Made by a program: the position numbers and the translations under genes. This document shows, in pieces, positions 35,414-52,422 of a DNA stretch of 64,000 bases. Position 1 is the stretch's first letter; each line of letters begins with the position of its first letter. The stretch is taken from positions 1 through 64,000 of IMG/VR virus record IMGVR_UViG_3300024354_000015, one strand, 5' to 3'. The stretch comes from a virus. Under the pieces are notes generated by a model that was not told where the DNA came from, did no database searches, and saw only the letters and a list, made by a program, of their open reading frames with translations.

Positions 35414-35950
35414 ATGCTTCCCTACAAAGCCATAGACCTTCCTGACTTTCAAATTATTAAACCTAAGCTGATAGATCTTATGTACAAGACTATCACAGAC
35501 TTCGATTCTACAAACACCAAGGCTACCAGTCACGATCTTATAGAACAATATTGCCCAGAACTAGTAAAGTTTTTTAACGCAAACAATCTTGTACTAGATG
35601 TAGGAAGATTTTTTGTAACTCCACCTAGAGATGGGTTATACATCCACGTAGACGGAAATTCGGAAGTTTCCAGAATTTTTAGTCTTAACTTACCACTACT
35701 AAACTGCGATCAGTCGGAAATGATCTGGTGGGATAATGTAGATATTGTGGAATATCGTAGTCATCAATCCTACGGTAACAATATTGCCAAAATGGACGGT
35801 GAGAATAAAATTAAATTAGCTGGCCTTGCTCTTACCACACCACATCTAGTTAGAGTAGATATACCACACAGTGTGGAAAATAACCAGGATAAACTTAGAG
35901 CTATATTCTCAATGAGATTTAAACCTGAACCTTACCATCTTTGGTATTAA
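35414..35950 (+). CDS. 2OG-Fe(II) oxygenase-like protein, 178 aa
   Basis: Plus strand. GLYIHVDGNSEVSRIFSLNL provides the His-x-Asp pair. VRVDIPHSVENNQ gives the distal His, and RAIFSMRF the Arg strand, as in small phage cupin-type dioxygenases. WWDN in the middle is shared with related proteins. Its end touches the 5' arm of RNA element A. Substrate unknown. Confidence 0.68.
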   Translation: MLPYKAIDLPDFQIIKPKLIDLMYKTITDFDSTNTKATSHDLIEQYCPELVKFFNANNLVLDVGRFFVTPPRDGLYIHVDGNSEVSRIFSLNLPLLNCDQSEMIWWDNVDIVEYRSHQSYGNNIAKMDGENKIKLAGLALTTPHLVRVDIPHSVENNQDKLRAIFSMRFKPEPYHLWY

Positions 35951-36015
35951 TATTGAAACACACTACTCTCGTTGTGGTCGCCGCCGCGGAACGGCATCGC
36001 AATGTGCTTCAATAT
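35950..36015 (-). ncRNA. Hairpin RNA element A (CACATT/AGTGTG family)
   Basis: 66-base element. Its arms ATATTGAAGCACATT and AGTGTGTTTCAATAT (minus strand) pair over 15 positions with two G-U pairs. The inner part is GC-rich (CCGCGGCGG). The same arm core occurs at 39930, 40941, 48557 and 52312. No coding sequence. Confidence 0.65.
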
Positions 36016-36122
36016 GCAGTCTCGTTTATCGTCCGAGACTGCTAAGACGGGGTCTGTAGACTACTGACAATTTATCCTACTGTACGCCGTCAGTAAAGGC
36101 GACTTCCTCACACGCGATAATA
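36016..36122 (-). ncRNA. Structured non-coding stretch next to element A
   Basis: Contains a 9-bp perfect hairpin (GCAGTCTCG ... CGAGACTGC, 36016-36042) and further short stems. No ORF of note. It lies between a plus-strand gene and a minus-strand gene, so it may be part of one RNA with element A. Confidence 0.45.
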
Positions 36123-36407
36123 TTATATGTATCTGTCTATATAGAGACCAACACTAGCAGCTCTTTGTACTAGTCGTTGTTCCTTGATGCTTTCGGCATA
36201 GGCATACTGAGTTAAAAATTCAGTGTCCTTCATATAATTGTAATTTCTTAATAACCTAAGACCTTCCTGCATAGAAATAAGCTTGACAAGTTCGTTGTAA
36301 TTTTGTAATTCAGCATCTTGTCTTTTATACTTGGCTAACACTTGTTGATGTTGGCCAACTTGAGCATAGTCAGTTAGTAAAGAACTAGGCACACGGTAAA
36401 CTATCAT
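36123..36407 (-). CDS. Hypothetical helical protein, 94 aa
   Basis: 94 residues, mainly helix with many Gln, Arg and Tyr (LLRNYNYMKDTEFLTQYAYA). No motif. Four-base overlap with the upstream membrane protein gene. Confidence 0.6.
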   Translation of the reverse strand: MIVYRVPSSLLTDYAQVGQHQQVLAKYKRQDAELQNYNELVKLISMQEGLRLLRNYNYMKDTEFLTQYAYAESIKEQRLVQRAASVGLYIDRYI

Positions 36408-36652
36408 TGTTCTAGGTCCTTGGCATCAATGCAAGTACCGCCCTTGAACACATAGACATCACTGTCTATTCTTAACTGTTCAAAAACGTGGTTATTGACA
36501 CATTTGTAGGGATCTTTGTGATTGTCCATATAATACAATACCCCATAGCCTATGCCCGCTAGTAACATTAAAATAGGTATATATTTTAAATACTTAACTA
36601 TTTCGGGAAGAGCACTTAATATTTGAGGTAAATTCTTTAACAGGTCTTTCAT
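36404..36652 (-). CDS. Single-pass membrane protein, 82 aa
   Basis: One hydrophobic segment (IPILMLLAGIGYGVLYYM, about residues 25-42) flanked by a Lys-rich N-terminal part and a C-terminal domain with two Cys that could form a disulfide in the periplasm. A TTAAATA box lies five bases before the ATG. Confidence 0.6.
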   Translation of the reverse strand: MKDLLKNLPQILSALPEIVKYLKYIPILMLLAGIGYGVLYYMDNHKDPYKCVNNHVFEQLRIDSDVYVFKGGTCIDAKDLEQ

Positions 36653-36671
36653 ACCTGTATTTAACAGGGAA

Positions 36672-36881
36672 TTACTGATCTAGGCGTGGTACGCTCAAAG
36701 CGGTTCTAAAAGCTTCCAGTTCAGCCTCATCAAAAAACAGTTCCATCTTGGTCTGTATGGCCTCGGGGTCCTTGGCCCAGTCGAACTTAGTAAAAATATG
36801 CACTCTAAAAAGTGCCGGGGGAAAATCCACTGGCGTGACTTCACAATAGAGTTTATAACCCTGAGCTTCCGTTATTAGCAT
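36672..36881 (-). CDS. Small protein, 69 aa
   Basis: 69 residues, beta then helix (FRVHIFTKFDWAKDPEAIQT, FFDEAELEAFRTAL). Uncharacterised type seen in marine phages. Follows tRNA-Asn. Confidence 0.55.
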   Translation of the reverse strand: MLITEAQGYKLYCEVTPVDFPPALFRVHIFTKFDWAKDPEAIQTKMELFFDEAELEAFRTALSVPRLDQ

Positions 36882-36900
36882 TACTTTCCCCTTATAAAAT

Positions 36901-36976
36901 TGGCTCCAGCGGTTGGGATCGAACCAACGACCAATTGATTAACAGTCAACTGCTACTACCACTGAGCTACGCTGGA
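36901..36976 (-). tRNA. tRNA-Asn(GUU)
   Basis: Acceptor TCCAGCG/CGCTGGA, anticodon loop CTGTTAA, T-loop TTCGATC, encoded CCA, discriminator G. Confidence 0.95.
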
Positions 36977-36983
36977 ATAAAAT

Positions 36984-37059
36984 TGGTAGGAAGTGACGGG
37001 ATCGAACCGCCGACATTCTGCGTGTAAAGCAGACGCTCTACCAACTGAGCTAACTTCCC
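36984..37059 (-). tRNA. tRNA-Val(UAC)
   Basis: Acceptor GGGAAGT/ACTTCCT, anticodon loop TTTACAC, T-loop TTCGATC, encoded CCA. Seven bases upstream of tRNA-Asn, so the two form a pair. Confidence 0.95.
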
Positions 37060-37099
37060 ATATAACATTTTACTACTAAAAGTTTATTAAGTCGAATTG

Positions 37100-38152
37100 T
37101 TATTCGCCAAATAAACCAAAAACATAATTGTTGTAATACTTGTAAAAATATTCTAGACCTAGTTCCATAGGATTGTGTACAGGTCCGTAATCACTATAAT
37201 TATTGTTATTAAGATGACATCTACCCTGATCCATACGCCTTGCTATTTCATCATCTTCATAACAGGTTTCCATATAGGCAGCCTGATGAGCTTGAACAAA
37301 CTCAGGTTCAAATAAAGCTATATCCTCGGGATAATAAAATTCAACAATATTTTTTGTGCGCTGTGGTGTTTCCGGCCACAGACTAGAAATTACTAAAACT
37401 TCAGGATACCATTCCACCATTACATTAGGATAGATGGTCAGCCATATTGCCCCAAATTCAGGTATTTGTCCCTTACGATAATTCATTAATACATCGTGCC
37501 AGCGACGATAAACTGGTGTACCGGGAGTGCGCAATTCATTATGAACTCCCACAGTCTGCACACTATACCAGTCACCAAACTGCCAGTCTAGTTTATTACA
37601 ATCTACAAAATTACCAAGGCCAGGATGGAAAGGTACCACGTGATAATCGTCTAGGTAGACTTCTATAAAGGTCTTCCAGTTGTAATCACAATGATGTTCC
37701 TGAGTGCTATGGTACTGGTAATTGTTAAAATCAAAATACTTACCAGCTCTCATACCAATAAGATCTCGAACAATGTTAAACTTACCTGATTCAAAAAATA
37801 GACCGTTCCAGCTCTGTGTGCTAAATTTTCTTAGTGGTCTATTAGGGCAAGGATCAAAATGTGGGGCGCCAACAAGTTCGCCTTCTAGATTGTAGGTCCA
37901 GCCGTGTAATGGACAAATAATGTTTGATGTTTCTCCACTGCCTGTTAGCATTACTGCTTGGCGGTGGCGGCAGACATTTTCTATACACTCTATACCGTTG
38001 TTGTTTTTAACTAACACTCTACCACTATTGTCCTGTGGAAGTGTGCGATAGTTATTGACAGATAGTTCGTGTCCTAGATATCTTGCCTGTTTAAAAAGTA
38101 ATTGTTCGCGTTCTAATATTTTATCGTCGAAATAAAAATGACTGGGTTTCAT
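37100..38152 (-). CDS. Rieske non-haem iron oxygenase (alpha subunit type)
   Basis: 350 residues. The Rieske [2Fe-2S] site is complete: Cys61-x-His63 (CRHRQAV) and Cys80-x2-His83 (CPLHGW). The catalytic domain shows EVYLDDYHVVPFHPGL with His171 and His176 as mononuclear iron ligands. Such enzymes hydroxylate aromatic or other organic substrates, or do O-demethylation. No ferredoxin reductase is nearby, so host electron carriers would be needed. The start overlaps the upstream small gene as TAATG. Confidence 0.9.
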   Translation of the reverse strand: MKPSHFYFDDKILEREQLLFKQARYLGHELSVNNYRTLPQDNSGRVLVKNNNGIECIENVCRHRQAVMLTGSGETSNIICPLHGWTYNLEGELVGAPHFDPCPNRPLRKFSTQSWNGLFFESGKFNIVRDLIGMRAGKYFDFNNYQYHSTQEHHCDYNWKTFIEVYLDDYHVVPFHPGLGNFVDCNKLDWQFGDWYSVQTVGVHNELRTPGTPVYRRWHDVLMNYRKGQIPEFGAIWLTIYPNVMVEWYPEVLVISSLWPETPQRTKNIVEFYYPEDIALFEPEFVQAHQAAYMETCYEDDEIARRMDQGRCHLNNNNYSDYGPVHNPMELGLEYFYKYYNNYVFGLFGE

Positions 38153-38301
38153 TAAATTATTTTTTTAGTATCAGTTACGACAAGTCCCATCTCTTTTAAA
38201 TGTCGTGCAACAAGTGTATCTATATGTTTATTAACTCTTTTTATTGCTGCATTACATTTTTTATCTAGTTCAGTATCAGTTTTGACTTTTTTCTTAGTCA
38301 T
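38152..38301 (-). CDS. Small Lys-rich protein, 49 aa
   Basis: Short ORF MTKKKVKTDTELDKKCNAAI and onwards, ending VVTDTKKII. It fills the gap exactly, overlapping the oxygenase start as TAATG and the upstream gene by eight bases, which argues that it is translated. Function unknown. Confidence 0.55.
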   Translation of the reverse strand: MTKKKVKTDTELDKKCNAAIKRVNKHIDTLVARHLKEMGLVVTDTKKII

Positions 38302-38590
38302 TATTTACTCCCTGAGTGGGTGCTAGGTTATATCTTCTTCTATATTGAGAGTCCACACTACCTGATGCTTCAGGACTAATATATTTAACATTGGATTCCA
38401 CAGGCAGGCCAAAAGTTTTTAAGATGTTAGCCTTGTCTGCCTGGCTACCGCAAGATTTTACACACTCTTGCACTATTAATTTAGCCAATCTCAGTATGGC
38501 CTCTTTATCATAATCGTCAAGATTGTCCCAGCAACCCTGAGCAGTCATACCTGCTTGATACATAAGGTCGTCCAATAGATTGCTATTCAT
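38294..38590 (-). CDS. Small protein with LIVQEC helix, 98 aa
   Basis: 98 residues. ILRLAKLIVQECVKSC matches the 'LIVQEC' helix of a small marine-phage family, and the next gene is a divergent copy (FARLVVQECLDIL). Role unknown. Confidence 0.6.
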   Translation of the reverse strand: MNSNLLDDLMYQAGMTAQGCWDNLDDYDKEAILRLAKLIVQECVKSCGSQADKANILKTFGLPVESNVKYISPEASGSVDSQYRRRYNLAPTQGVNND

Positions 38591-38828
38591 TGTCTTGATT
38601 TCTCCCTAGACCAAAATGTTGTTTTAGATCCTGTCTAAAACTTTTTAAGTATATATCCCTCTCTTCTTTACTGTCTTCCCGAATGTGTTCATTTAAAATG
38701 TCTAGACATTCCTGTACAACTAACCTAGCAAATATTTTATTATAATGTTCTATCCAAAGGTCAGGAGCCAGTACTCCCTTGGGCACTGACTCCTTGGCTT
38801 TCTCTGAAATGTTTTTTATTAAATCCAT
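38583..38828 (-). CDS. Small protein with LVVQEC helix, 81 aa
   Basis: 81 residues with IFARLVVQECLDILNEHI and a terminal KQHFGLGRN, the usual ending of this small marine-phage family. Ends in TAG inside the next gene. Paralogue of the 38294 gene. Confidence 0.62.
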   Translation of the reverse strand: MDLIKNISEKAKESVPKGVLAPDLWIEHYNKIFARLVVQECLDILNEHIREDSKEERDIYLKSFRQDLKQHFGLGRNQDNE

Positions 38829-38839
38829 TTAATTATTTT

Positions 38840-38917
38840 TGGACCGTCCTGAGGGAGTCGAACCCCCGACCTTCAAGTTCGTAGCCTGATGCTCTAATCC
38901 TACTGAGCTAAGGACGG
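38840..38917 (-). tRNA. tRNA-Arg(ACG)
   Basis: Acceptor CCGTCCT/AGGACGG, anticodon loop CTACGAA, T-loop TTCGACT, encoded CCA. Starts two bases after the stop of the gene upstream. Confidence 0.94.
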
Positions 38918-38918
38918 A

Positions 38919-39122
38919 TTAATCTCTACGTTTTTTCCAATCATAACCAGGTCCAGTTTCCGTTACACCAAACTCGCCAACCATATCAGCAAGCTCGCTG
39001 CACATAGTAACATACTTTCTACCAGTACTTCTAAGATGCTGACAATAATTAAGTGCTTCTGTCATATCTTCAAATTCTTGACCGTAGGTTTCATCACCGT
39101 AGGTCCAATATACTTTATACAT
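38919..39122 (-). CDS. Small conserved protein, 67 aa
   Basis: 67 residues, starting MYKVYWTYGDETYGQEFEDM, then a helix (TEALNYCQHLRSTGRKYV) and TETGPGYDWKKRRD. A typical conserved small marine-phage protein of unknown role, located between two tRNA genes. Confidence 0.62.
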   Translation of the reverse strand: MYKVYWTYGDETYGQEFEDMTEALNYCQHLRSTGRKYVTMCSELADMVGEFGVTETGPGYDWKKRRD

Positions 39123-39138
39123 ATCTACTTTCTTAACT

Positions 39139-39225
39139 TGGTGGGTGCTCTCCGATTCGAACAGAGAAGGCCAAAGACAACAGATTTACAGTCTGCCCCC
39201 GATACCATTACGGGACTAAGCACCC
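39139..39225 (-). tRNA. tRNA-Tyr(GUA)
   Basis: Class II, 87 bases. Acceptor GGGTGCT/AGCACCC, anticodon loop CTGTAAA, T-loop TTCGAAT, encoded CCA. Confidence 0.94.
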
Positions 39226-39336
39226 AATCTAAATCTTGCTATGTTCTTTTGCGAGAACTCTAGTTGCAGTCTGAGAGGCTTGAGTCCTAGGATACAGAGG
39301 CCGTCCTGCCACAGCGTAAAGCGACACTGTGCATCT
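39226..39336 (-). ncRNA. Hairpin-rich spacer between tRNA-Tyr and tRNA-Glu
   Basis: 111 bases without ORF. Contains GTTCTCGCAAAAGAAC and a CACAG...CTGTG stem. Reported as a spacer with structure; independent RNA identity is uncertain. Confidence 0.3.
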
Positions 39337-39413
39337 TGGTACACCGTAGGGGATTCGAACCCGCTCTAGCCACCTTGAAAGGGTGGTGACCTCAACCAGA
39401 TGTCTAACGGTGC
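39337..39413 (-). tRNA. tRNA-Glu(UUC)
   Basis: Acceptor GCACCGT/ACGGTGT, anticodon stem CCACC/GGTGG with loop CTTTCAA, T-loop TTCGAAT, encoded CCA. Confidence 0.94.
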
Positions 39414-39488
39414 AATAAAAACTCTCGGCAAGCCTAAGCCACCTGCCTTCCCCTACCTATCAAGGCTTAGATGTAGTGTAGAGAAACT

Positions 39489-39563: not shown

Positions 39564-39929
39564 TTATATTAGTATTATATTAGTAAGTGCTATCGTGCCA
39601 ATTTAGGAGTCCGGTGCTTCCGTTCCAGAGCGTATGGCTGGTTATGTCAGGACCTGTTCCACGCCAGTTAGGCCCGCATAGTAAATGATCAGTTTACGAT
39701 ACCCAATGTTTCATCGATAACACTTGCTAATATATTGGTTAGGCCACGCTTTTCCACGGTCGCCCCTATCCTGGAGTTGTTACCCTGTCCGAACACTGTT
39801 TGGCAGACGGCCGACGAAGTGTCCACGCTGCTAGGTCGTCTGTCTCTAGTAACGCTAACGGTGCCCTAGCCACCGGGCCTTGTCGTGTGCCATACGCTAC
39901 TTTTAGGAAAGTAGTAACCGGATTCTTGA

Positions 39930-40018
39930 CTTTCTGAAACACACTATATCCAATCTCAAGGGCACTCTTTAGAATGCGACTCATACTTGTGAAATCCACT
40001 ACAATGTGTTTTAGAAAG
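39930..40018 (-). ncRNA. Hairpin RNA element C (CACATT/AGTGTG family)
   Basis: 89-base element with arms CTTTCTAAAACACATT and AGTGTGTTTCAGAAAG (minus strand), 15 of 16 positions paired. It has the same core as elements A, B, D and E, and lies inside the large RNA block. Confidence 0.6.
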
Positions 40019-40352
40019 TGTTAAGACTGAGATTACATCTTAACTACAAGCACCTCGGGTATTATAGTCAGCCTTGCGAGCCAATCTTCTCCACGACATC
40101 CACAAGATCCATATCGCTATGTGATCCAGTCTGCTTGCAGCATCGCCGTTTAAAGACAGGCAGTAGTCTTGTCATTGTATGCTACTCTGTACCTTATTAC
40201 CCGTTGAACTTGCGGTCCATTAAGCCTTGCGAGCTACGAATCTTCTAGTACAAATCAGTTTCACCTTGCGGGTTAGACTGAACTTAGTTAGCTTACGCCC
40301 TAAGTGTTAGATGCTTTTCACATACAACCGGAGCAGTCTTTGCGTTTTTGTT

Positions 40353-40425
40353 TAATGATAGTTGGATTTGAACCAACTGCCTACAGTTTAAAAGGACTGT
40401 TGCTCTACCAATGAGCTATATCAAC
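40353..40425 (-). tRNA. tRNA-like structure, Lys(UUU)-like, degenerate
   Basis: D-arm GCTC-ATTGGTA-GAGC and T-arm GTTGG-TTCAAAT-CCAAC are good. The anticodon stem ACAGT/ACTGT closes an eight-base loop CCTTTTAA. The acceptor GTTGATA/TATCATT has a T-T mismatch, and no CCA is encoded. It may be a decayed tRNA or a tRNA-like domain of the surrounding RNA. Confidence 0.55.
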
Positions 40426-40940
40426 CTACTATGATGTGCTGCTCCAGTTGCCGCATACTCTTTTGGAATACACGATACAACACACCACGTACCTTTCGCC
40501 TGCCGGCTACTCAGTAGTATTTCACGATTCTTGTGACGCCTCACAGCAGCCCCAAGTACCATTCATACTGCACACAAGCCCTTGGCTGCGAAACCTTGGA
40601 CAAATGCACTACCCTTTCTCATACCAACTAACTGGTTGGTTTTGTAGTGAAGTCAGCACCACCTGTTACTTTCCTTGCACCCTAGTTCCCTTGCGGGCTA
40701 GTCGATACAAGTTCTTTCCACTACACCAGCTTCATTGTTACAACCACCGGTCTTATCAGTGATCGCTACCTCGCGGTAGTGAGCAGGCTTGTTTAACTGG
40801 ACCATCTCTGGCGCAGTCCTGTAGGAGGATTCTGCTTTGGGTGACTCACGCCACTTATCCTTAGTTAGACGGCGAACCGCCTAACAAGAGATTAAACTCC
40901 CTAAGTATCTATATTACAGCTAAATTCTTTTAATGTCAAC

Positions 40941-41080
40941 CACCATATTGAAACACACTCCCAAGGGGCTGTCATTAACCCACTTGTAACTTTGTACAAC
41001 CTGTCGGGTAGCTACTTCCGTACTCTTGTACTCACCGTGAAGCTGGCACGGCAATGACAGAAATGTGCTTCAATATGGTG
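40941..41080 (-). ncRNA. Hairpin RNA element B (CACATT/AGTGTG family)
   Basis: 140 bases. Arms CACCATATTGAAGCACATT and AGTGTGTTTCAATATGGTG (minus strand) pair over 19 positions, and an inner stem CTGTCATT/AATGACAG extends the fold. The arm sequence ATATTGAAGCACATT is identical to that of element A, 5 kb away. Confidence 0.68.
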
Positions 41081-41241
41081 CAAACAAATGCGATGGGATT
41101 CGAACCCAACCTAGACGCCCGGTCACGGAACTCATCCACACCTGCAAGTGCTTCAACTCTCCGCTACTGGGGCTTCTGTGCCAGCCAATACACTTACGCA
41201 GCCTGTCATATCCCATTGCAGTGTTATATGAACAGTCTTGT
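41081..41241 (-). ncRNA. Non-coding stretch with a T-arm-like motif
   Basis: About 160 bases without ORF. A perfect tRNA T-arm (TTGGG-TTCGAAT-CCCAT) ends near 41092, but I find no matching acceptor, D-arm or anticodon arm, so this is not called a tRNA. It lies between elements B and F. Confidence 0.35.
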
Positions 41242-41470
41242 ACCATATTAAAATATATTAGGATGCTTCACAGAGATCGCAGCCTTTGAACTCTGCCCAA
41301 CCGTGCCGTCCACGGATTTGTCTGTGTCACACATTACGTTCCTAGTTGTTCCAGCGTCCTCCTGATATTATCTCAAGGTTTCGTGAGACCTAGCAAGAGC
41401 CACTCCGTCAAGTGGTTATCCTCTTCTAGGCCCCCTACTGGCTAGGTAACCTAATATATTTTAATATGGT
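41242..41470 (-). ncRNA. Element F: 229-base unit with 21-bp perfect inverted arms
   Basis: Arms starting ACCATATTAAAATATATTAG on both strands pair perfectly over 21 positions. The first four bases of the 5' arm are the ACCA end of tRNA-Leu(UAG). Inside lie CAAGGTTTCGTGAGACC-type and CCGTGGACGGCACGG-type stems. No gene on either strand. Confidence 0.5.
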
Positions 41471-44474: not shown

Positions 44475-45504
44475 CAAGTTCCTGTTCATATTGTCTGCGA
44501 CGGTCTGCATCAACTAATTTTGCAAATTCATCGTGAGTGTAAATCTCACCACGATATCGGACAGTCTGCGCTGGTTGAATGTTGGGATTAATTTTATTAA
44601 GATAAGTTATTACCCTATGCATCATCCTTTTGTCGCCATCTAGAATATTTGTTGGTCGCTTGTGTAGAGTGATCTCTTGATCCATAAACACAATCTGTCC
44701 ATCCTGCCAATCCTGCGTGTAGACATAACGATCATCATAAAAATGTTTCTTTAATTCACGGTAAAGGCGCCAGCTTTCTTCCTGGCTCATTCCCACAAAC
44801 CCATCAAAATCAAAGTGAGGGAATTTTACCCCCGGGCGTCCAGTGACTGTTTCGCTGTATAACTTTGTTTCCATTCCGTCTAGTGGCACACCGTTATAAT
44901 GAATAATCATAGTCTGTTCACGATTTAGTCCCGGGGCACATCCTTCTTCCCCTTCACGCCATTTATGACGCACTACAAGTTCTTTTACCATACTTTGCAT
45001 ATCTGAACTCAAGGACATAAATTGATCGTGTGTGGGCATAAACTGTGTCTGACTACCTGCACTGTCGCTCACACTCATTAGGCCAATCATACGAGGTGCA
45101 TCATCAAATGCACACTGATCACTGTGCCAATCTAATTCTCCGTTACTAAAAATTCCTTTAGGCCGGCCTCGATCATCTTTTAGGTAGCTAACACGACTAA
45201 CTGCGCCAGCAAGTTCACCCATACCATTATTGATGTAACCTAATTGTAGGAATAAATCACGCCAATGGCGTCCACTTAGTCTCTGACTTACTATGTAGTT
45301 ATGGATTAGAGCTCGACTAGGACTTCCCCACTGAGTCATTACATCGTATAACCGTTGTGTTGGTACTCCCTGATCAATGAATACCACACATTGATCTGCT
45401 ACTAGCTTACCAAGCTCAAATATTTCATCGTCCTGTGTGAGGTCTATGTCATAGACTTCTACACCTATGCTACCCTGGTAATTTTTTAATGGTCTTATTT
45501 TCAT
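44446..45504 (-). CDS. TauD/TfdA-type Fe(II)/2-oxoglutarate dioxygenase, copy 1
   Basis: 352 residues. The facial triad is visible: DWHSDQC (His127-x-Asp129) and the distal His in ITLHKRPTN, with MMHRVITYL as the 2-oxoglutarate Arg strand. It is a close paralogue of the gene immediately upstream, with shared blocks FSNGELDWHSDQC and DWQDGQIVFMDQEITLHKRP. These enzymes hydroxylate or halogenate small molecules, including ACP- or peptidyl-carrier-bound amino acids. Overlaps the next gene by 29 bases. Confidence 0.9.
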   Translation of the reverse strand: MKIRPLKNYQGSIGVEVYDIDLTQDDEIFELGKLVADQCVVFIDQGVPTQRLYDVMTQWGSPSRALIHNYIVSQRLSGRHWRDLFLQLGYINNGMGELAGAVSRVSYLKDDRGRPKGIFSNGELDWHSDQCAFDDAPRMIGLMSVSDSAGSQTQFMPTHDQFMSLSSDMQSMVKELVVRHKWREGEEGCAPGLNREQTMIIHYNGVPLDGMETKLYSETVTGRPGVKFPHFDFDGFVGMSQEESWRLYRELKKHFYDDRYVYTQDWQDGQIVFMDQEITLHKRPTNILDGDKRMMHRVITYLNKINPNIQPAQTVRYRGEIYTHDEFAKLVDADRRRQYEQELDEQARLQPY

Positions 45505-46544
45505 TCTGCAAACTCCAATTCTTGTTCATATTGTGTGCGACGGTCTTGATCAACTAATTTTACAAAATCTTCTTCAGTATAAACTGAACCTTGATATTTG
45601 TAAGTTGATCTTCTTATGGCGTATGCGCTGTCAGGGTACAAATAGTTAACATAGGTAATACTACGTGCCATTGTACGACGATCACCGTCTTTTACATTAG
45701 TTGGTCGTTTGTGTAGAGTAATCTCTTGGTCCATAAACACAATCTGCCCATCCTGCCAGTCTTGTGTATGCACGTAACGATCGTTGTAGACTACTGATTT
45801 AATTTCATCTAGTAATTTAATACTTTCTTCACGGCTCATACCCACAAATCCATCAAAGGTATGACTAGGAATTTTTATTCCAGTTAAGCCGCTGGCAGTT
45901 TCTGAATATAAGTTTGTTTCAAGTCCGTCAATGGGTACCATATTATATCTAAGCATCATTGACTGAGCCCTGTTTAAGCCAGGTGCCATAAGTCCCTCAT
46001 ACCAACGGTGCTTACAGACCAATTCCTTGATCATACTACGCATATCCGAGCTTAATGACTCGTAGGCATCGTGTGTGCATAAAAATTGTGTCTGGCTGTT
46101 TGCTGTATCACTTATACTTTGAAGACCAATAACTCGTTGTCCGTCGTCTATAGCGCATTGATCACTGTGCCAGTCAAGTTCTCCATTGGAAAATAAACCG
46201 CGTGGTCTATCTTTTTCTTTTTTAAGGTAACTTACTAGTGCTACGGATTTAAGTTCAGGAACTTCACTTGTTATATAGCGCAGATTAAGTGTTAGCTCGC
46301 GCCAGTGACTGCCTGTTAATAGTTTACGACTTACATAGTCAGTTATAATGGGATGACTTACATCGCCCCAGTTAATCATAGTTTTATAAAGTTGCTCGGT
46401 GCTAATGTGTTCATTGACAACTACTACACACTGACTGGCTGCTAGACGACCTAGTTCAAGAATTTCTTCTTGAGAGTTCCAATCAATATCATAAGCTTCA
46501 AGTCCAACACTAGCACCATAATTTTTCAATGGTCTAGTTTTCAT
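45501..46544 (-). CDS. TauD/TfdA-type Fe(II)/2-oxoglutarate dioxygenase, copy 2
   Basis: 347 residues, tandem duplicate of the 44446 gene with the same metal triad (DWHSDQC, ITLHKRPTN). Both begin MK(T/I)RPLKNY, and the ATGA overlap couples them. The copies have clearly diverged (for example in the 55-110 region), which suggests two sequential or alternative substrates rather than recent duplication. Confidence 0.9.
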   Translation of the reverse strand: MKTRPLKNYGASVGLEAYDIDWNSQEEILELGRLAASQCVVVVNEHISTEQLYKTMINWGDVSHPIITDYVSRKLLTGSHWRELTLNLRYITSEVPELKSVALVSYLKKEKDRPRGLFSNGELDWHSDQCAIDDGQRVIGLQSISDTANSQTQFLCTHDAYESLSSDMRSMIKELVCKHRWYEGLMAPGLNRAQSMMLRYNMVPIDGLETNLYSETASGLTGIKIPSHTFDGFVGMSREESIKLLDEIKSVVYNDRYVHTQDWQDGQIVFMDQEITLHKRPTNVKDGDRRTMARSITYVNYLYPDSAYAIRRSTYKYQGSVYTEEDFVKLVDQDRRTQYEQELEFAE

Positions 46545-47131: not shown

Positions 47132-47136
47132 TTACT

Positions 47137-47568: not shown

Positions 47569-47569
47569 T

Positions 47570-47955: not shown

Positions 47956-47974
47956 AAATTTATTTTAGTTAAAT

Positions 47975-48049: not shown

Positions 48050-48053
48050 TTTA

Positions 48054-48203: not shown

Positions 48204-48561
48204 CTTGATCTCCTAATAAATCTTCGGAATATGGATAAGTTAATTCTTCACCTTTGTCAATATCTCTAGCCGCAAATGTTTCATTGCTATTACCTACGAC
48301 ATTTGGAGTTCGACTCCAATTCATAAATCTGTCATTGTCAAAACTTAATCTGTACATTTGAGATTCAGGATCTTTGTATCCCCAATGTAATATGTACTCT
48401 CGTGCGGCGAGTGGTAGAGAAATAAAATCCAAATAACACCACTCTAGATCTAGACCTGGTGTTAGCTGCCAGATTTTAGTTCCTTGTGGGACAAATTCAT
48501 CTGCAAATACTCCCAGTCCGTGTATAGGGCTAGGCCCTAGATAAGTTTTTACTAGTACCAT
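48190..48561 (-). CDS. SET-domain protein
   Basis: 123 residues from ATG 48561, whose codon lies in the 3' arm of RNA element D. SET-domain signatures are present: SPIHGLGVFADEFVPQGTKI, then FDNDRFMNWSRTPNVVGNSN (the RFxNxSxxPN block) and FAARDIDKGEELTYPY. SET proteins methylate protein lysines using SAM. The missing pre- and post-SET cysteines place it with small bacterial/phage forms. A host ribosomal or DNA-binding protein is a possible target, not shown. Confidence 0.82.
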   Translation of the reverse strand: MVLVKTYLGPSPIHGLGVFADEFVPQGTKIWQLTPGLDLEWCYLDFISLPLAAREYILHWGYKDPESQMYRLSFDNDRFMNWSRTPNVVGNSNETFAARDIDKGEELTYPYSEDLLGDQDANV

Positions 48562-48645
48562 ATAAAAACACATTCCTGGACAGTCGTATACTCTCCATAG
48601 CCCCGGGCGCTATTATTATTATATTCGAATGTGTTTTTATATGGT
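48557..48645 (-). ncRNA. Hairpin RNA element D (perfect 19-bp arms)
   Basis: Arms ACCATATAAAAACACATTC and GAATGTGTTTTTATATGGT (minus strand) pair without mismatch. The 5' arm begins with the ACCA of tRNA-Lys, and the 3' arm contains the start codon of the SET gene. It may control both tRNA 3' processing and SET translation. Confidence 0.65.
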
Positions 48646-48718
48646 AGGTGCGGTGAGACTCGAACTCACAACTTATCGGTTAAAAGCCGATTACTCTAAC
48701 CAGTTGAGTTACGCACCC
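48642..48718 (-). tRNA. tRNA-Lys(UUU)
   Basis: Acceptor GGGTGCG/CGCACCT, anticodon stem ATCGG/CCGAT with loop CTTTTAA, T-loop TTCGAGT, encoded CCA. Bases 8-10 are UAA and form the stop codon of the small gene upstream. Confidence 0.95.
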
Positions 48719-48816
48719 ATTGTAATACCATATAGTTGGAACATTATTGCTGCTCGTTTAAGCCTATCGCGATATGTCCAACCATATCTTAATAGACCCT
48801 TCTTGTCACTATCCAT
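48709..48816 (-). CDS. Very small protein, 35 aa, ending inside tRNA-Lys
   Basis: MDSDKKGLLRYGWTYRDRLK then RAAIMFQLYGITMGA. A strong ribosome site AAGGAG lies nine bases before the ATG. The frame reads through the first seven bases of tRNA-Lys and stops at its bases 8-10 (TAA). Function unknown. Confidence 0.5.
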   Translation of the reverse strand: MDSDKKGLLRYGWTYRDRLKRAAIMFQLYGITMGA

Positions 48817-48845
48817 AACAGGATCTCCTTGTTGTCAACGCATAA

Positions 48846-48882
48846 AAAAACCTAGCATACTACAATAGTACCTAGGTTAAAA
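48846..48882 (-). terminator. Rho-independent terminator (possibly bidirectional)
   Basis: AACCTAG ... CTAGGTT stem with runs of A on one side and T on the other, so it can end transcripts in either direction. It closes the transcript that covers the structured stretch 48885-49092. Confidence 0.7.
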
Positions 48883-49092
48883 AAATAAGTTGTCTGGCTA
48901 CTGATCCTCATCAGCCCCAGACTGGGCTGTTACTCCGTCCTCTACATTTACTTCTGGCAAGGCGTAGTACCCACCTACGATTTTTCAAGTCGCCCATATA
49001 GCGGGCCTTGAGGCTATCATCGTATGAGCCCTGGCATTATGGTGAAGCCAATTTACCCCCAGTTAATAACGTAGATGGGACTACGAGGTTCT
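48883..49092 (-). ncRNA. Structured non-coding stretch after tRNA-Thr(UGU)
   Basis: About 210 bases without a gene. Hairpin CAGCCC-AGTCTG-GGGCTG at 48912-48929 and a nested stem TCAAG-GCCC-...-GGGC-GA-CTTGA at 48985-49011. It sits between a tRNA and a terminator, so it is likely transcribed as a stable RNA tail. Confidence 0.5.
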
Positions 49093-49168
49093 TGGTGCCG
49101 CCGAAAGGAATCGAACCCTCGACATCCTGATTACAAATCAGGCGCTCTACCAACTGAGCTACAGCGGC
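49093..49168 (-). tRNA. tRNA-Thr(UGU)
   Basis: Acceptor GCCGCTG/CGGCGGC, anticodon stem CCTGA/TCAGG with loop TTTGTAA, T-loop TTCGATT, encoded CCA. Confidence 0.95.
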
Positions 49169-49174
49169 TAGAAA

Positions 49175-49444
49175 TTAATCTTTAACTCGTACTTGTGTTA
49201 CTGTATTTTCCTGATGTTCAATGTGTGGTTCTTGTTTTACAGGTTCTTTAACTTCCTTGGCAGGTTGTTCAAAGTTTCCTGATATAACATCCTTTATACT
49301 CTGCGGCACAATACTCCAGCTTAAAGGCTTCCACCATCTGTGAATCATATTGTTAATTAAAATTGCACAACCTGCTACTATCATACAGGCCACGCTAATC
49401 AATAAAGTACTTGTTACAAAATTTGTTGCTACTGTAATATCCAT
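49175..49444 (-). CDS. Single-pass membrane protein with charged tail, 89 aa
   Basis: N-terminal transmembrane segment (TLLISVACMIVAGCAILINN, about 13-32), then a Trp-rich interface and a long Glu/Lys/Gln tail. Similar layout to small phage membrane or spanin-like proteins, but no lipobox. Function unknown. Confidence 0.6.
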   Translation of the reverse strand: MDITVATNFVTSTLLISVACMIVAGCAILINNMIHRWWKPLSWSIVPQSIKDVISGNFEQPAKEVKEPVKQEPHIEHQENTVTQVRVKD

Positions 49445-49507
49445 AATTTTTTCCTAACTGCCTTACATTATACTTGAAAATACATTTAACACAAGTTTTT
49501 TGAACAA

Positions 49508-49729
49508 CTACCTGGAATAACGCCTTATATGATGAAATATTGGGCGCCTAGCTTTTCTTGATCCAGGGTCTCCTCCAACTACAAGAAACATCCCCTGTTT
49601 AAGACCGCGACTGTGTTTATCTACAAAATAGGCTAGGCCGCGATTGGTAGTCCTAATTAAACATTCGTTGTAATCATTAGTGACCATATAAATCTCTAGT
49701 CCAGTGTTATCATAGTCAACATAAATCAT
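49508..49729 (-). CDS. Small protein, 73 aa
   Basis: 73 residues: beta-rich start (MIYVDYDNTGLEIYMVTNDY), then LKQGMFLVVGGDPGSRK and a basic end. A late-promoter-like AATAAATA box is five bases before the ATG. Ends in TAG. Function unknown. Confidence 0.55.
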   Translation of the reverse strand: MIYVDYDNTGLEIYMVTNDYNECLIRTTNRGLAYFVDKHSRGLKQGMFLVVGGDPGSRKARRPIFHHIRRYSR

Positions 49730-49826
49730 CCAAATATTTATTTTACATTATTATCGATTAGGACCAGTAAGTACACTACAAGAATAAAAACTGCGATTGC
49801 CCCATTTTGTTTCCCCTTAAAGTAAC

Positions 49827-49902
49827 TGGAGCGGGCGATCAGGTTCGAACTGACGACATTTACCTTGGCAAGGTAACGCTCTACCAACTGAGCTACGCCC
49901 GC
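49827..49902 (-). tRNA. tRNA-Gly(GCC)
   Basis: Acceptor GCGGGCG/CGCCCGC, anticodon stem TTACC/GGTAA with loop TTGCCAA, T-loop TTCGAAC, encoded CCA. Nearly the same acceptor half as tRNA-Gly(UCC). Confidence 0.95.
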
Positions 49903-49909
49903 ATTGTTT

Positions 49910-50002
49910 TGGTACTTGGGGAGGGATTCGAACCCTCTCTAACCGCCCATCTAGCGTATCGAGGTTATAAATCTCGTCGTGCTACCGTTACACTACCCAA
50001 GT
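49910..50002 (-). tRNA. Class II tRNA with anticodon UAU (Ile-type codon AUA)
   Basis: 93 bases: acceptor ACTTGGG/CCCAAGT, long 22-base variable arm, T-loop TTCGAAT, encoded CCA. The only sensible anticodon stem (CGAGA/CCTCG, one A-C pair) leaves loop TTTATAA and anticodon UAU. A class II body with an Ile anticodon is unexpected. Amino-acid identity is uncertain. Confidence 0.7.
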
Positions 50003-50012
50003 ATAAATTATT

Positions 50013-50249
50013 TTACTGAGTCCATTTAAGGACGAAAAGAACTTGATCTCGCTCCCAGCGGAAAGCGACACCTATATTGTAAATTTGATCAGTGGGTTCA
50101 AAAGCCCAGTTAGAATATCTAGGGCCCACATTAGAGGTCAACCAGTTTTCCACGGAGTATAACCCCCAGACCCAGTCCAGTTGCGCATCGGGCATCTGTG
50201 GCCAGGGTATTTCCGCTCGGTACTGGAAGATATGCCAATCCCATAACAT
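50013..50249 (-). CDS. Small Trp-rich protein of the F-x-L-x-W family, 78 aa
   Basis: 78 residues with ten or more Trp/Tyr, ending VAFRWERDQVLFVLKWTQ, the C-terminal motif also found at 16490, 16760 and 18141. TATAAATA lies five bases before the ATG. Function unknown. Confidence 0.62.
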   Translation of the reverse strand: MLWDWHIFQYRAEIPWPQMPDAQLDWVWGLYSVENWLTSNVGPRYSNWAFEPTDQIYNIGVAFRWERDQVLFVLKWTQ

Positions 50250-50254
50250 AAAAA

Positions 50255-50262
50255 TATTTATA
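50255..50262 (-). promoter_or_regulatory. T4-type late promoter box, five bases from the ATG
   Basis: TATAAATA on the minus strand followed by TTTTT and ATG 50249. Confidence 0.55.
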
Positions 50263-50281
50263 AGATTGGCAAGATACTTTG

Positions 50282-50354
50282 AAGCGGGTGCTGGATTCGA
50301 ACCAACGATCTTCAGGTTATGAGCCTAACGGGATGACCTCTTCCCTAACCCGCA
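50282..50354 (-). tRNA. tRNA-Met(CAU), initiator-like
   Basis: Anticodon stem TTAGG/CCTGA with loop CTCATAA, followed by AGATCGTTGGTTCGAATCC as in bacterial tRNA-fMet. The first acceptor pair is open (U1-U72), an initiator hallmark. CCA is not encoded, unlike most tRNAs here. The three G-C pairs of a classical initiator anticodon stem are incomplete, so the call is tentative. Confidence 0.7.
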
Positions 50355-50365
50355 TCAAAGTATCC

Positions 50366-50443
50366 TGGAGCATCGGGCTGGATTCGAACCAGCGAATCGA
50401 AGGTTTTGCAGACCCCGCCATTAGGCCTCTCTGGTACCGATGC
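50366..50443 (-). tRNA. tRNA-Cys(GCA)
   Basis: Acceptor GCATCGG/CCGATGC, anticodon loop CTGCAAA, T-arm GCTGG-TTCGAAT-CCAGC, encoded CCA with U discriminator. Confidence 0.94.
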
Positions 50444-50624
50444 ATAGGTTGGAGGCTTATTACCTCCTAGATGTCCGTAGCGCATAGCGTCCTATACGTT
50501 CACTAGTAAATTCTAGCTATACCCCAACTACAGGCCGGACTATCTTTATTACATAAAATTTTTACGTCTAAACAACTGTTGCCATTTCCATTTAATATAA
50601 TGTGGCCATTCACGTAGAGGAAAT

Positions 50625-50816
50625 TTAAACAAGATATTCTTTCTCTTTAATATAATTGACTGTATTGAAACCAGCTACAATAAGCCAACCCAGTGTTGCA
50701 CTAAAATATCCAGACACTGCTGGCATATTCCCCTGCACATAATACGTGCCTATACCAATCGCCCCCATTATTACTAAAAGCACGGGTACAATTATTTTTA
50801 ATATACTGCCTTTCAC
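50625..50816 (-). CDS. Small two-helix membrane protein, 63 aa
   Basis: Start codon GTG at 50816, overlapping the upstream TGA by two bases. Two hydrophobic segments (about 7-25 and 36-53) and a short Lys/Glu end. GWLIVAGFNTVNYIK is shared with the upstream gene (GWLIVSADEYTYFK), so the two are tandem paralogues. Possible holin-like or channel-like role; not shown. Confidence 0.6.
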   Translation of the reverse strand: MKGSILKIIVPVLLVIMGAIGIGTYYVQGNMPAVSGYFSATLGWLIVAGFNTVNYIKEKEYLV

Positions 50817-50992
50817 AATGTCCCTCTAGTCTTAAAATAGGTGTATTCGTCTGCGCTGACAATTAACCAACCAAACAGGGCTGTTACATTAGCCCATATC
50901 GCCATATCATTGTGTTGATGTACAGCCAAGGCAAGATTAAGAAAACACAAAATAAAAATGCTAGTAGGAACTGCAAGTCTTAGATACTTCAT
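50813..50992 (-). CDS. Small two-helix membrane protein, 59 aa
   Basis: MKYLRLAVPTSIFILCFLNL start, a second segment ALFGWLIVSADEYTYF, ending TRGTL. Paralogue of the next gene, with coupled translation. Not seen in larger annotations because of its size. Confidence 0.58.
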   Translation of the reverse strand: MKYLRLAVPTSIFILCFLNLALAVHQHNDMAIWANVTALFGWLIVSADEYTYFKTRGTL

Positions 50993-51015
50993 AATTATAC
51001 TCCTAGAAAAATTGT

Positions 51016-51089
51016 TGGCTCCGGAGGAGGGAATCGAACCCCCACTAACGGTTTTGGAGACCGCCGCACTGCCACTATACTACTCCGGA
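51016..51089 (-). tRNA. tRNA-Trp(CCA)
   Basis: Acceptor TCCGGAG/CTCCGGA, anticodon stem GCGGT/ACCGT with loop CTCCAAA, discriminator G, encoded CCA. U8-A9-G10 (51080-51082) is the TAG stop of the upstream membrane protein gene. Confidence 0.94.
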
Positions 51090-51337
51090 TCTTTAATCAT
51101 ACCAGAAATCATTGTACTACGACGTTCCTGAATCTCTTTAATTTTTTCTTCCGATTCCAACTGCGTTAAATTAATTGAATAGACTACCCAGATCATCCAG
51201 GCGAAAAAGGAAATTGTAAATAGACCAAAAAGTGTATCACTATCTAGCCTAAACAAGAGCATTACAAACAGAGGAGCCAGTGTAGCTATGGCAATCATAC
51301 CCACTGTGCGACCTGCTGCTCGAAGTTTAATGTTCAT
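51080..51337 (-). CDS. Two-helix membrane protein, 85 aa
   Basis: Two transmembrane segments (TVGMIAIATLAPLFVMLLF and LFGLFTISFFAWMIWVVY), then a Glu/Lys-rich coiled tail. The final codons (GAT CCG GAG TAG) are the first bases of tRNA-Trp. Function unknown; membrane lesion or lysis timing would be a guess. Confidence 0.65.
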   Translation of the reverse strand: MNIKLRAAGRTVGMIAIATLAPLFVMLLFRLDSDTLFGLFTISFFAWMIWVVYSINLTQLESEEKIKEIQERRSTMISGMIKDPE

Positions 51338-51423
51338 TATGAACTCCTACTTAGTTAATGAAGTTCACATATTACTTTAAGTTCTAATTTAAGTCAATAG
51401 GTATTGATAGTTTTTGAACATTC

Positions 51424-51513
51424 TGGCGGAAGTGGTAGGATTCGAACCCACGGACCATTTCTGATCGTCTGTTTTCAAGACAGGTGCATTAAACCGGACT
51501 CTGCCACACTTCC
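51424..51513 (-). tRNA. tRNA-Ser(UGA)
   Basis: Class II, 90 bases. Acceptor GGAAGTG/CACTTCC, anticodon loop CTTGAAA, long variable arm, T-loop TTCGAAT, discriminator G, encoded CCA. Confidence 0.94.
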
Positions 51514-51522
51514 TTTATTTTG

Positions 51523-52143
51523 TTATGCTAGACCCAATAATACAAATTTTTTAACTAAATCGTATTTGGCAAAATCAGTGCTGCAATGTAATTGGTTTTT
51601 ATGCCATCTAATAACATCGCCTGCTTGCCATTCTAAATCTCTATCAACTGGAAGATACTGTATTTGCTCTCGGGTTTCAGGCTTACAATGCGAAAAGTCT
51701 TCTAGATCTAGTGTATTTTTAACACCTAACCATTCACTGGGCATTGGTTCTCCCATTTCATAACGTTTTTCGTAAAATATATCAAATGTTACAGTACGTA
51801 ATTTAGGACTAGTAACGAGAGGTATCAACAAAAAACATTGATGGTTTTCTTCTGCTTTAAAAGTATAGGTATCGTCCCACCAAGCATAATTGTCTATATG
51901 TATAGTATAGGGTTGGATACATTCTTTGTAGCTACCGTTTTCAAAATGATGATCACCTATTAGAGCTTGTATCTTTGGTTTAATAAAAGTATGGGCAAAA
52001 CTATCTTCAATATGGTAATCAAGGTTTTTATCAAAATTTAAATAATTTTTTGTAGCTATTGGCTGATTTTTAAAAAAATTTAAAATTTGATTAACTTCTT
52101 CTTGAGAAAATATATTCTTATATAAGAAACTTTTATTTACCAT
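51523..52143 (-). CDS. 2OG-Fe(II) oxygenase-like protein, 206 aa
   Basis: YTIHIDNYAWWDDTYTF has the His-x-Asp pair. The distal His lies in GDVIRWHKNQLHCSTDF, and the core strands FLLIPLVTSP fit a double-stranded beta helix. It belongs to the group of small phage oxygenases with WWD motifs (see 35414). Substrate unknown. The stop is ten bases from tRNA-Ser(UGA). Confidence 0.68.
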   Translation of the reverse strand: MVNKSFLYKNIFSQEEVNQILNFFKNQPIATKNYLNFDKNLDYHIEDSFAHTFIKPKIQALIGDHHFENGSYKECIQPYTIHIDNYAWWDDTYTFKAEENHQCFLLIPLVTSPKLRTVTFDIFYEKRYEMGEPMPSEWLGVKNTLDLEDFSHCKPETREQIQYLPVDRDLEWQAGDVIRWHKNQLHCSTDFAKYDLVKKFVLLGLA

Positions 52144-52162
52144 ATATCATCACTTAATAATT

Positions 52163-52257
52163 TGGCGGAGCGTGTTGGATTCGAACCAACGATCCAGATT
52201 TTTGTCCAGATGCTTTCTTAGCAGGAAAGTGCCTTCGACCAACTCGGCCAACGCTCC
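52163..52257 (-). tRNA. tRNA-Ser(GCU)
   Basis: Class II, 95 bases. Acceptor GGAGCGT/ACGCTCC, anticodon stem CTTTC/GAAAG with loop CTGCTAA, discriminator G, encoded CCA. Confidence 0.94.
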
Positions 52258-52311
52258 GTATTTTTCTAGTATATAGCCAAACTCACTAATTGTAAAGTAT
52301 ATTTGGTGAAC

Positions 52312-52422
52312 TATTCTAAAACACACTAACGGATTCGAACCGTCCACCTTAAAGGCCCCCTTACGGCGGCCCGGCTGCGTCCAGAGCATAGGCGTGTACT
52401 TAGCCCAGTGTGCTTTAGAATA
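52312..52422 (-). ncRNA. Hairpin RNA element E with tRNA-like T-arm
   Basis: 111 bases. Arms TATTCTAAAGCACACT and AGTGTGTTTTAGAATA (minus strand) pair over all 16 positions with one G-U. Just inside the 3' arm is a T-arm-like ACGG-TTCGAAT-CCGT. The inner seven pairs (GCACACT/AGTGTGT) could serve as an acceptor stem, but no convincing anticodon arm is found. Member of the CACAYT/ARTGTG family. Confidence 0.6.

What the first reader, a model, noticed from the sequence alone, without database searches (positions are those of the whole stretch)
35950..52422. A family of five hairpin elements sharing a CACAYT...ARTGTG stem core
Elements A (35950-36015), B (40941-41080), C (39930-40018), D (48557-48645) and E (52312-52422) each have 15-19 bp inverted arms whose inner ends are always CACA(C/T)T and A(A/G)TGTG. 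A and B share an identical 15-base arm although their insides differ. Outer arm bases co-vary (TATTCTA vs CTTTCT vs ATATTG), so structure is kept while sequence changes. This suggests a common RNase or protein site that releases or protects RNA pieces of the tRNA transcript.
Basis: seen in the sequence. Interest (0 to 1): 0.8.

Follow-up and report, generated by a model that had tools for sequence, protein, structure and literature searches.

The report
Swappable RNA hairpins behind phage tRNAs
In uncultured tRNA-rich phages, a conserved hairpin often sits directly on the 3' end of a tRNA or another structured RNA, pairs with the tRNA's own CCA tail, and carries at its tip small RNA modules that have been exchanged between genes and phages; what the modules do is not known.

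Summary
The five hairpins are real. The same stem recurs in many IMG/VR phage contigs but hardly in bacterial genomes: an 18-nt arm has a matching partner arm in 105 of 120 viral loci and 0 of 117 genome loci.

Where a tRNA 3' end lies within 14 nt of the core, the stem starts on its CCA in 83 of 87 cases. Pairing covers the discriminator base and CCA and ends at the acceptor stem, so this looks like an RNA-level trailer stem that clamps the tRNA tail. A hairpin of the same kind is the removable spacer of permuted tmRNA in the 22 of 25 phage genes that I could parse, and one follows GOLLD in 5 of 7 cases.

The interiors are exchangeable modules. One 36-nt module lies in such stems in 14 of 14 places, in about eight gene contexts. 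One identical 72-nt module sits behind tRNA-Lys in one phage and inside a tmRNA in another. Two phages share both flanks but hold different modules.

Best reading: a processing stem at the 3' boundary of stable phage RNAs that hosts swappable RNA modules. Anatomy and exchange are shown; cleavage, enzyme and module function are inferred. RNase III or tyrosine recombinase in the records: 0 of 30.

The parts
35950..36018 (-). Element A: arms CATATTGAAGCACATT / AGTGTGTTTCAATAT around the 36-nt module 'Y'; follows directly on a small hairpin (GCAGTCTCG/CGAGACTGC, by eye)
40942..41079 (-). Element B: arms ACCATATTGAAGCACATT / AGTGTGTTTCAATATGGT, 102-nt interior; begins on the ...TTTGCACCA end of an unidentified stretch (about 41080-41240)
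39928..40020 (-). Element C: arms ACTTTCTAAAACACATT / AGTGTGTTTCAGAAAGT (one A.C mismatch); lies directly downstream of GOLLD RNA; its interior recurs 96% identical behind a tRNA-Lys in L061 with other outer arms
48557..48645 (-). Element D: ACCATATAAAAACACATT / AATGTGTTTTTATATGGT; the first four bases are the discriminator base and CCA of tRNA-Lys
52310..52424 (-). Element E: TTATTCTAAAGCACACT / AGTGTGTTTTAGAATAG; interior ends in a T-arm-like GGACGGTTCGAATCCGTT; the stem is kept in the relative L017 and the interior is alignable there
48642..48718 (-). tRNA-Lys(TTT) whose encoded CCA forms the base of element D
40024..40488 (-). GOLLD RNA 3' domain (RF02032, 214 bits) with a tRNA inside; C follows it
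41242..41469 (-).

Best explanation
The hairpins are RNA-level boundary stems at the 3' ends of stable phage RNAs. Shown: in the tRNA-strand transcript about 19 bp can form from the discriminator base and CCA of the upstream tRNA (ACCA pairs with TGGT) through a half-conserved middle to the CACAYT/ARTGTG core; the interior beyond it (median 52 nt) is an exchangeable module found unchanged, or nearly so, in different stems, genes and phages. Inferred: the stem is a processing site. Host enzymes (RNase P where the next RNA starts directly after the stem, and an RNase III-type or other endonuclease or tRNA 3'-processing enzyme at CCA|N) would cut it away. That would give the mature CCA end and release or discard the module, just as the same kind of hairpin must be removed from permuted tmRNA. 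Any RNA module that folds on its own could be hosted there because it is removed, so modules can be swapped.
For: Position: of 167 hairpins in 146 viral loci, 87 have a tRNA 3' end within 14 nt of the core and 83 of these have it at exactly 8 nt, directly after CCA. In the docked set pairing is 0.88-1.00 from position -12 (base 73) to +5 except at -4 (0.39), 0.83 at +6, and near shuffle level at -13 and from +7. Covariation where positions vary: -5 paired in 0.99 against 0.56 shuffled in the docked set; -12, -11, -10 paired in 0.84, 0.95, 0.99 against 0.65, 0.80, 0.81 and -7, -6, -5 in 0.95-0.99 against 0.71, 0.67, 0.50 in the other set. Strand: outside -4 and +4, 96 G.U against 22 A.C on the tRNA strand. 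Folding: C75 pairs with the 3' arm at P>0.5 in 71 of 75. In 27 of 156 unique hairpins the next tRNA starts exactly 9 nt after the core; 23 of these are also docked on a tRNA, so the hairpin is the whole spacer. Permuted tmRNA: 20 of 30 chosen records hold one over the cut-off; 22 of 25 spacers parsed, all hairpins directly on CCA with 8-10 of 10 pairs (shuffled 9 or more: 0.0009). Module exchange. Orientation is the same in 40 of 40 similar pairs that can be oriented.
Against: No transcript ends, no expression and no enzyme data exist here. Only 83 of 1,797 tRNA genes in these loci carry the core stem, so it is not needed for tRNA maturation in general. At position -4 the tRNA strand often has an A.C mismatch (65 A.C, 2 G.U over both sets), which does not fit a plain maximised stem. 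No RNase III in 30 records. Most loci were found with an arm pattern that contains ACCA, so the frequency of CCA docking is biased upward; 7 of 26 loci found by protein instead also carry the hairpin. 79 of 156 unique hairpins are not docked on a called tRNA at that spacing; orientation of 72 rests on the majority tRNA strand of the locus and 3 have none. The invariant CCA and core positions carry no covariation information in the docked set. In cultured phages and 30 bacterial tRNAs the docked stem was not found except on one MAG contig, so no laboratory system is at hand.
Confidence: 0.6

Rival explanations
1. Selfish RNA-borne inserts: the hairpins are neutral or parasitic spacers, like the intervening sequences of bacterial 23S rRNA, tolerated because they are cut out; the modules have no function.
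For: Same logic as 23S rRNA IVS (terminal inverted repeats forming a stem, excised by RNase III, horizontally acquired: PMC4990558, abstract and passages read). Modules occur in different contexts. The tRNA-Lys site of relatives L003-L005 holds a plain hairpin without core or module.
Against: No two hairpins within one locus have similar interiors (0 of 93 within-locus pairs), unlike a copy-number-driven parasite. Some modules are 90-100% identical across contexts, and module Y keeps a covarying pair (GCYG/CRGC; sequences), which suggests selection on the module.
Confidence: 0.2
2. DNA-level recombination or mobile sites (integron attC-like folded sites, or MITE-like inverted repeats) that move the modules.
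For: Inverted repeats with conserved inner ends, variable interiors and clear exchange at the arms.
Against: No tyrosine recombinase in 30 chosen records (other recombinase types were not searched). The stem boundary is the tRNA's single-stranded tail, not an arbitrary DNA point. G.U is favoured over A.C on the tRNA strand outside two positions. No flipped orientation in 40 oriented pairs, though some of these pairs may be simple descent. Outer arms differ in 17 of 45 similar-interior pairs, so the unit that moves does not bring whole arms along.
Confidence: 0.1
3. Transcription terminators or mRNA-stability hairpins.
For: Stable stems between genes.
Against: No U-run after the 3' arm in the cases I read; in 27 of 156 a tRNA on the same strand starts 9 nt after the core; interiors are long and often structured.
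Confidence: 0.05
4. Purely structural subdomains of larger ornate RNAs such as GOLLD.
For: C follows GOLLD, and in 5 of 7 GOLLD matches looked at (window, L046, L097, L122, L299) such a hairpin follows the GOLLD 3' end; L302 and the sub-threshold L303 showed none.
Against: Only 5 of 30 chosen records have GOLLD over the cut-off; 77 of 156 unique hairpins are docked on called tRNAs.
Confidence: 0.03

Closest known systems
Intervening sequences (IVS) of bacterial 23S rRNA (e.g. Coxiella burnetii, Salmonella; PMC4990558)
   Same: Removable insert closed by a long inverted-repeat stem in a stable RNA precursor; horizontal origin
   Different: Here the stem is docked on the CCA tail of tRNAs, in tmRNA spacers and behind GOLLD, not in an rRNA helix; interiors are mostly 36-100 nt (5th to 95th percentile), too short for the S23 ORF; RNase III cleavage is not shown; modules are exchanged between gene contexts
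Intervening segment of permuted (two-piece) tmRNA (RF04321; PMC11915505, PMC9004378)
   Same: In these phages the segment is itself such a hairpin directly after CCA; it can carry the same modules as tRNA trailers (L122 with L056; L270/L271 with window A, 89%)
   Different: A tRNA trailer lies between two different RNAs, and only one strand is continuous with the acceptor stem; 4 or 5 nt instead of 8 lie between CCA and the core in the tmRNA examples with the core
GOLLD RNA (RF02032; PMC12286853)
   Same: Found in the same phage tRNA arrays; the hairpin abuts its 3' end
   Different: The hairpin is outside the Rfam GOLLD model (match ends at 40024, element C is 39928-40020), and 24 of 30 chosen records have no GOLLD match
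Mimivirus 3'-end 'hairpin rule' (Byrne 2009; seen only as a citation in PMC3521657, content recalled)
   Same: A hairpin marks RNA 3' ends in a large virus (recalled)
   Different: Eukaryotic virus, polyadenylation; no conserved core, no modules (recalled)
PhiTE pseudo-ToxI RNA (PMC3475682)
   Same: Small phage non-coding RNA, subject to recombination; named only as a comparison for the novel reading
   Different: Sequence relation not tested; there the RNA is a repeat array

Membership tests
23S rRNA intervening sequence | Insert in a 23S rRNA helix | tested here: not met
   Elements lie behind tRNA, tmRNA acceptor pieces and GOLLD
23S rRNA intervening sequence | Terminal inverted repeats forming a stem | tested here: met
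   About 19-bp stem
23S rRNA intervening sequence | Excision by RNase III | not testable with these tools
   No RNA data; RNase III domain in 0 of 30 phage records; host enzyme not examined
[quoted passage not shown]
   Not met for the five window elements: no RF04321 match in the window's record. Met for hairpins in 22 of 25 phage tmRNA genes elsewhere (3 not parsed)
Integron attC site | Associated tyrosine recombinase | tested here: not met
   PF00589 in 0 of 30 chosen records
Integron attC site | R box GTTRRRY and its partner RYYYAAC (recalled) | tested here: not met
   Read by eye: the arm consensus, ACCATATWRAARCACAYT / ARTGTGYTTYWATATGGT, holds neither
Known Rfam family | Match to any of 4,227 Rfam models | tested here: not met
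   None of the elements A-E matches, even at E up to 5
tRNA | Cloverleaf with anticodon | tested here: not met
   17 of 156 interiors have a T-arm-like string, but ARAGORN and cmscan call no tRNA in the five window elements

The most novel reading that the evidence does not exclude
Tailed phages share a horizontally exchanged library of small structured RNA modules that are plugged into CCA-docked stems of tRNAs, tmRNA and ornate RNAs, transcribed along with them and freed by tRNA processing. Each module would be an effector RNA, for example a decoy or mimic against host RNA-targeting defence, and each phage keeps a set of different ones.
Probability: 0.22. Interest if true: 0.92.

Novelty: new variant of a known kind. 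Interest (0 to 1): 0.74.

Why it matters
It offers a rule for part of the spacers in phage tRNA arrays: some are not filler but stems that grip the tRNA tail and carry swappable RNA modules, shared with permuted tmRNA and placed behind GOLLD. The rule makes testable predictions (RNA ends at CCA|N, loss with stem mutants, stable module RNAs). It also yields a catalogue of small phage RNAs, without an Rfam family in the window examples, which are candidates for RNA-based counter-defence.

Tried and rejected
Rejected or set low: terminators (no U-run in the cases read, next tRNA 9 nt away in 27 of 156); integron or MITE DNA sites (no tyrosine recombinase in 30 records, no flipped orientation, boundary at base 73); GOLLD subdomain (few records have GOLLD); known Rfam family (no hit at E up to 5). 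'Clean G.U proof of the RNA strand' had to be softened: +4 favours the tRNA strand (109 U.G, 1 C.A) but -4 favours the other (65 A.C, 2 G.U); only the remaining positions (96 against 22) speak for the tRNA strand. A constant 19-bp ruler was dropped as a general claim: tmRNA spacers with the core have 4 or 5 nt, not 8, between CCA and core, and L276/L277 have 9.

Led nowhere: BLAST for the hairpins in cultured phages (no match; weak hits only, among them 23 identical bases in phage Phosso); tests for CCA-docked stems in Phosso (0 of 49 tRNAs) and in three other cultured phage stretches (0 of 6; 38 of their 44 tRNAs have no encoded CCA). The fourth fetched stretch, CAKLQF020000003.1, reads like bacterial chromosome and was counted with the bacteria, where 2 of 30 tRNAs had a docked stem, both on L241. 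Strict hairpins in the genome loci: L241 (6 raw) and L257 (1). Rfam at gathering threshold on 15 loci listed 150 of 227 rows, so minor families there may be unseen. In one search my first parser of the tmRNA spacers failed, and the pair counts printed used a wrong register; one search gives the right one. 3 of 25 stayed unparsed (L306, L310, L314), and L270 and L271 are identical there.

Rows dropped before counts: 167 hairpins became 156 after identical ones were merged; 155 used, 76 of 77 and 76 of 79 (short or cut ones left out). A few of the 156 are probably coding look-alikes (L017 8930, L104 5404, L140 11884, L141 3342) and were kept. The 30 records were chosen by me for length; L037, L057 and L071 have no strict hairpin in their fetched loci.
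Full report
WHAT WAS CHECKED. The window is part of an 88,243-base uncultured virus record with 29 ARAGORN tRNA calls, all on the minus strand, and a GOLLD RNA at 40024-40488. The five hairpins are at the places given, and RNAfold puts their long stems in the minimum-energy structure. None of them matches an Rfam family, even at E up to 5.

THE FAMILY IS REAL AND FOUND IN VIRUSES. Relatives of the neighbouring protein (ORF 45501-46544; 26 loci) hold the same hairpins in 7 of 26 loci. Within 330 nt, the best partner for the arm has at least 15 of 18 pairs in 105 of 120 viral loci and in 0 of 117 genome loci. Strict hairpins occur in 96 of 120 viral loci (174 raw hits; six scrambled cores gave 1-9) and in 2 of 117 genome loci (7 raw hits; controls 0-1). 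Six of those 7 raw hits are on L241, a small MAG contig that may be viral, and one on L257.

IT SITS ON THE CCA. Of 167 hairpins in 146 viral loci, 87 have a tRNA 3' end within 14 nt of the core and 83 of these have it at exactly 8 nt, that is, the stem starts on the encoded CCA. All 83 tRNAs end in CCA, as do 1,666 of the other 1,714. tRNA-Lys is favoured: 44 of 96 tRNA-Lys genes against 39 of the other 1,701; the search pattern may add to this. Position by position (76 docked hairpins), pairing is 0.88-1.00 from base 73 (-12) to +5 except at -4 (0.39, mostly A.C), 0.83 at +6, and near the shuffled level at -13 (0.58 against 0.51) and from +7. So the stem takes in the tRNA's single-stranded tail and stops at the acceptor stem. 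In 27 of 156 unique hairpins the next tRNA starts 9 nt after the core, and 23 of these are docked upstream too, so the hairpin is the whole spacer. Folded with its tRNA, C75 pairs with the 3' arm at P>0.5 in 71 of 75.

RNA OR DNA. Covariation is strong where the sequence varies: -5 is paired in 0.99 of cases against 0.56 in shuffles (docked set), and -7, -6 and -5 in 0.95-0.99 against 0.71, 0.67 and 0.50 (other set); invariant positions carry no such information. On the tRNA strand there are 96 G.U against 22 A.C outside positions -4 and +4. Position +4 is U.G in 109 (1 C.A), while -4 is A.C in 65 (2 G.U); these two conserved departures point opposite ways and may be recognition features. Similar interiors keep one orientation in 40 of 40 pairs where both loci can be oriented; 5 further pairs involve loci without tRNAs, whose strand is arbitrary, and read as minus. 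No tyrosine recombinase (0 of 30) and no RNase III (0 of 30) was found in the chosen records; the same searches rang in 14 and 8 of 14 control genomes.

A WIDER RULE. In the same loci, 140 of 1,693 tested tRNAs have a CCA-docked stem of at least 13 of 14 pairs (shuffled mean 5.3), among them 64 that were not scored as core hairpins, many of them near variants of the core and a few probably chance. These include the plain hairpin behind tRNA-Lys in L003-L005, a 225-nt stretch behind tRNA-Leu in the window (41242-41469), and a roughly 100-nt RNA whose arms differ from copy to copy but stay complementary (L065, L066, L071, L092, L114, L139; grouped by eye).

LINK TO PERMUTED tmRNA. 20 of the 30 chosen records carry a permuted tmRNA over the Rfam cut-off (over the cut-off in 1 of 14 control genomes). 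For comparison, a survey found tmRNA in 402 of 18,146 phage genomes, with 53 two-piece structures (PMC9004378, passages read); my records were chosen for length and for the hairpins, so the two rates are not directly comparable. In 22 of 25 tmRNA genes I could parse the intervening segment; all 22 are hairpins directly on CCA (10, 9 or 8 of 10 pairs in 11, 10 and 1; shuffles reach 9 in 0.0009), and four have the CACATT/AGTGTG core (L043, L122, L295, L312), the others variants of it or other stems. The intervening sequence is absent from mature tmRNA and is cut by tRNA-processing enzymes (PMC11915505, passages read). GOLLD is followed by the hairpin in 5 of the 7 matches looked at: the window, L046, L097, L122 and L299; not seen in L302 and in the sub-threshold L303.

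MODULES ARE EXCHANGED. Module Y (36 nt, window element A) was scanned in viral contigs: 14 of 14 occurrences lie in such stems (some copies are near-identical phages), in about eight contexts: behind tRNA-Ile, tRNA-Arg, tRNA-Lys, four other RNA ends including window element A, and in two identical permuted tmRNAs. The outer arms differ in the tmRNA, tRNA-Arg and tRNA-Lys cases and at the base of window A, and in the first three they fit each other there too. Module X lies in such stems in 10 of 13; the other 3 are unrelated sequence. L056 (behind tRNA-Lys) and L122 (inside a permuted tmRNA) share an identical 72-nt interior with only 7 of 12 outer-arm bases alike. L030 and L267 share 231 of 256 bases upstream and 56 of 56 downstream, but one holds X and the other Y. 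Of 45 similar-interior pairs, 17 have clearly different outer 5' arms (at most 9 of 12 alike). Within a locus no two interiors are similar (0 of 93 pairs). 60 of 156 unique hairpins fall into a cluster of similar interiors; the rest have no relative in this sample.

INTERPRETATION. The shown facts fit a removable stem at the 3' boundary of stable phage RNAs, with a module at its tip. That it is cut rests on the analogy with permuted tmRNA; the enzyme is inferred. The nearest known way of working is the 23S rRNA intervening sequence, a stem-closed insert excised by RNase III (PMC4990558, abstract and passages read). It is not a member of that family, since it is not in 23S rRNA.

PRINT STATUS. 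Searches that found no description of such tRNA-docked hairpins: (PMC open-licence papers only; titles and starts of abstracts of the listed papers seen). Papers of which I read passages: PMC12286853, PMC9004378, PMC11915505, PMC3521657, PMC3475682, PMC4990558, PMC3978253.

Noticed in passing
window 41242-41469: About 225-nt stretch docked on the CCA of tRNA-Leu; similar stretches by eye in L064, L106 and L140; no Rfam match over it.
   Followed up: partly
window 52425-52570: Conserved stretch (GGGCGGACAGTATATATGAAA ... GTAAGACTACTGGTTGGGGTGTCGACCCCAAC) upstream of E, alignable in L017, by eye also in L030, L043, L104 and L140; no Rfam match over it.
   Followed up: partly
L065, L066, L071, L092, L114, L139: Roughly 100-nt similar interior (CTCTGTAAGCTCAGAG ... 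CAWATAGTGCAGAG) behind tRNA-Glu and tRNA-Ala with different but complementary arms from copy to copy (by eye).
   Followed up: no
records G000-G029: Permuted tmRNA over the cut-off in 20 of 30 chosen records, many more than a published survey of phages would suggest (PMC9004378).
   Followed up: partly
L299 and L102/L104: The module behind GOLLD in L299 (GGTCTACCGCCACCGAGAGG...) also occurs behind tRNA-Lys in L102 and L104 (by eye).
   Followed up: no
window 39140-39226 (by eye): Likely tRNA-Tyr that ARAGORN did not call.
   Followed up: no
L028 926-1123: Group I intron match within the tRNA array of a hairpin phage.
   Followed up: no
L241 (JAPLNQ010000024.1): MAG contig labelled Planctomycetia with six raw hairpin hits and two CCA-docked tRNA stems; may be a binned phage contig.
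   Followed up: no
L287 (CAKLQF020000003.1): Record filed as Acinetobacter phage MD-2021a carries bacterial housekeeping genes; looks like host chromosome.
   Followed up: no
L266 (Sinorhizobium phage Phosso): 51 ARAGORN tRNAs in the 49-kb stretch, but no CCA-docked stems among 49 tested; 23 bases identical to a hairpin phage near a tRNA-like stretch.
   Followed up: partly
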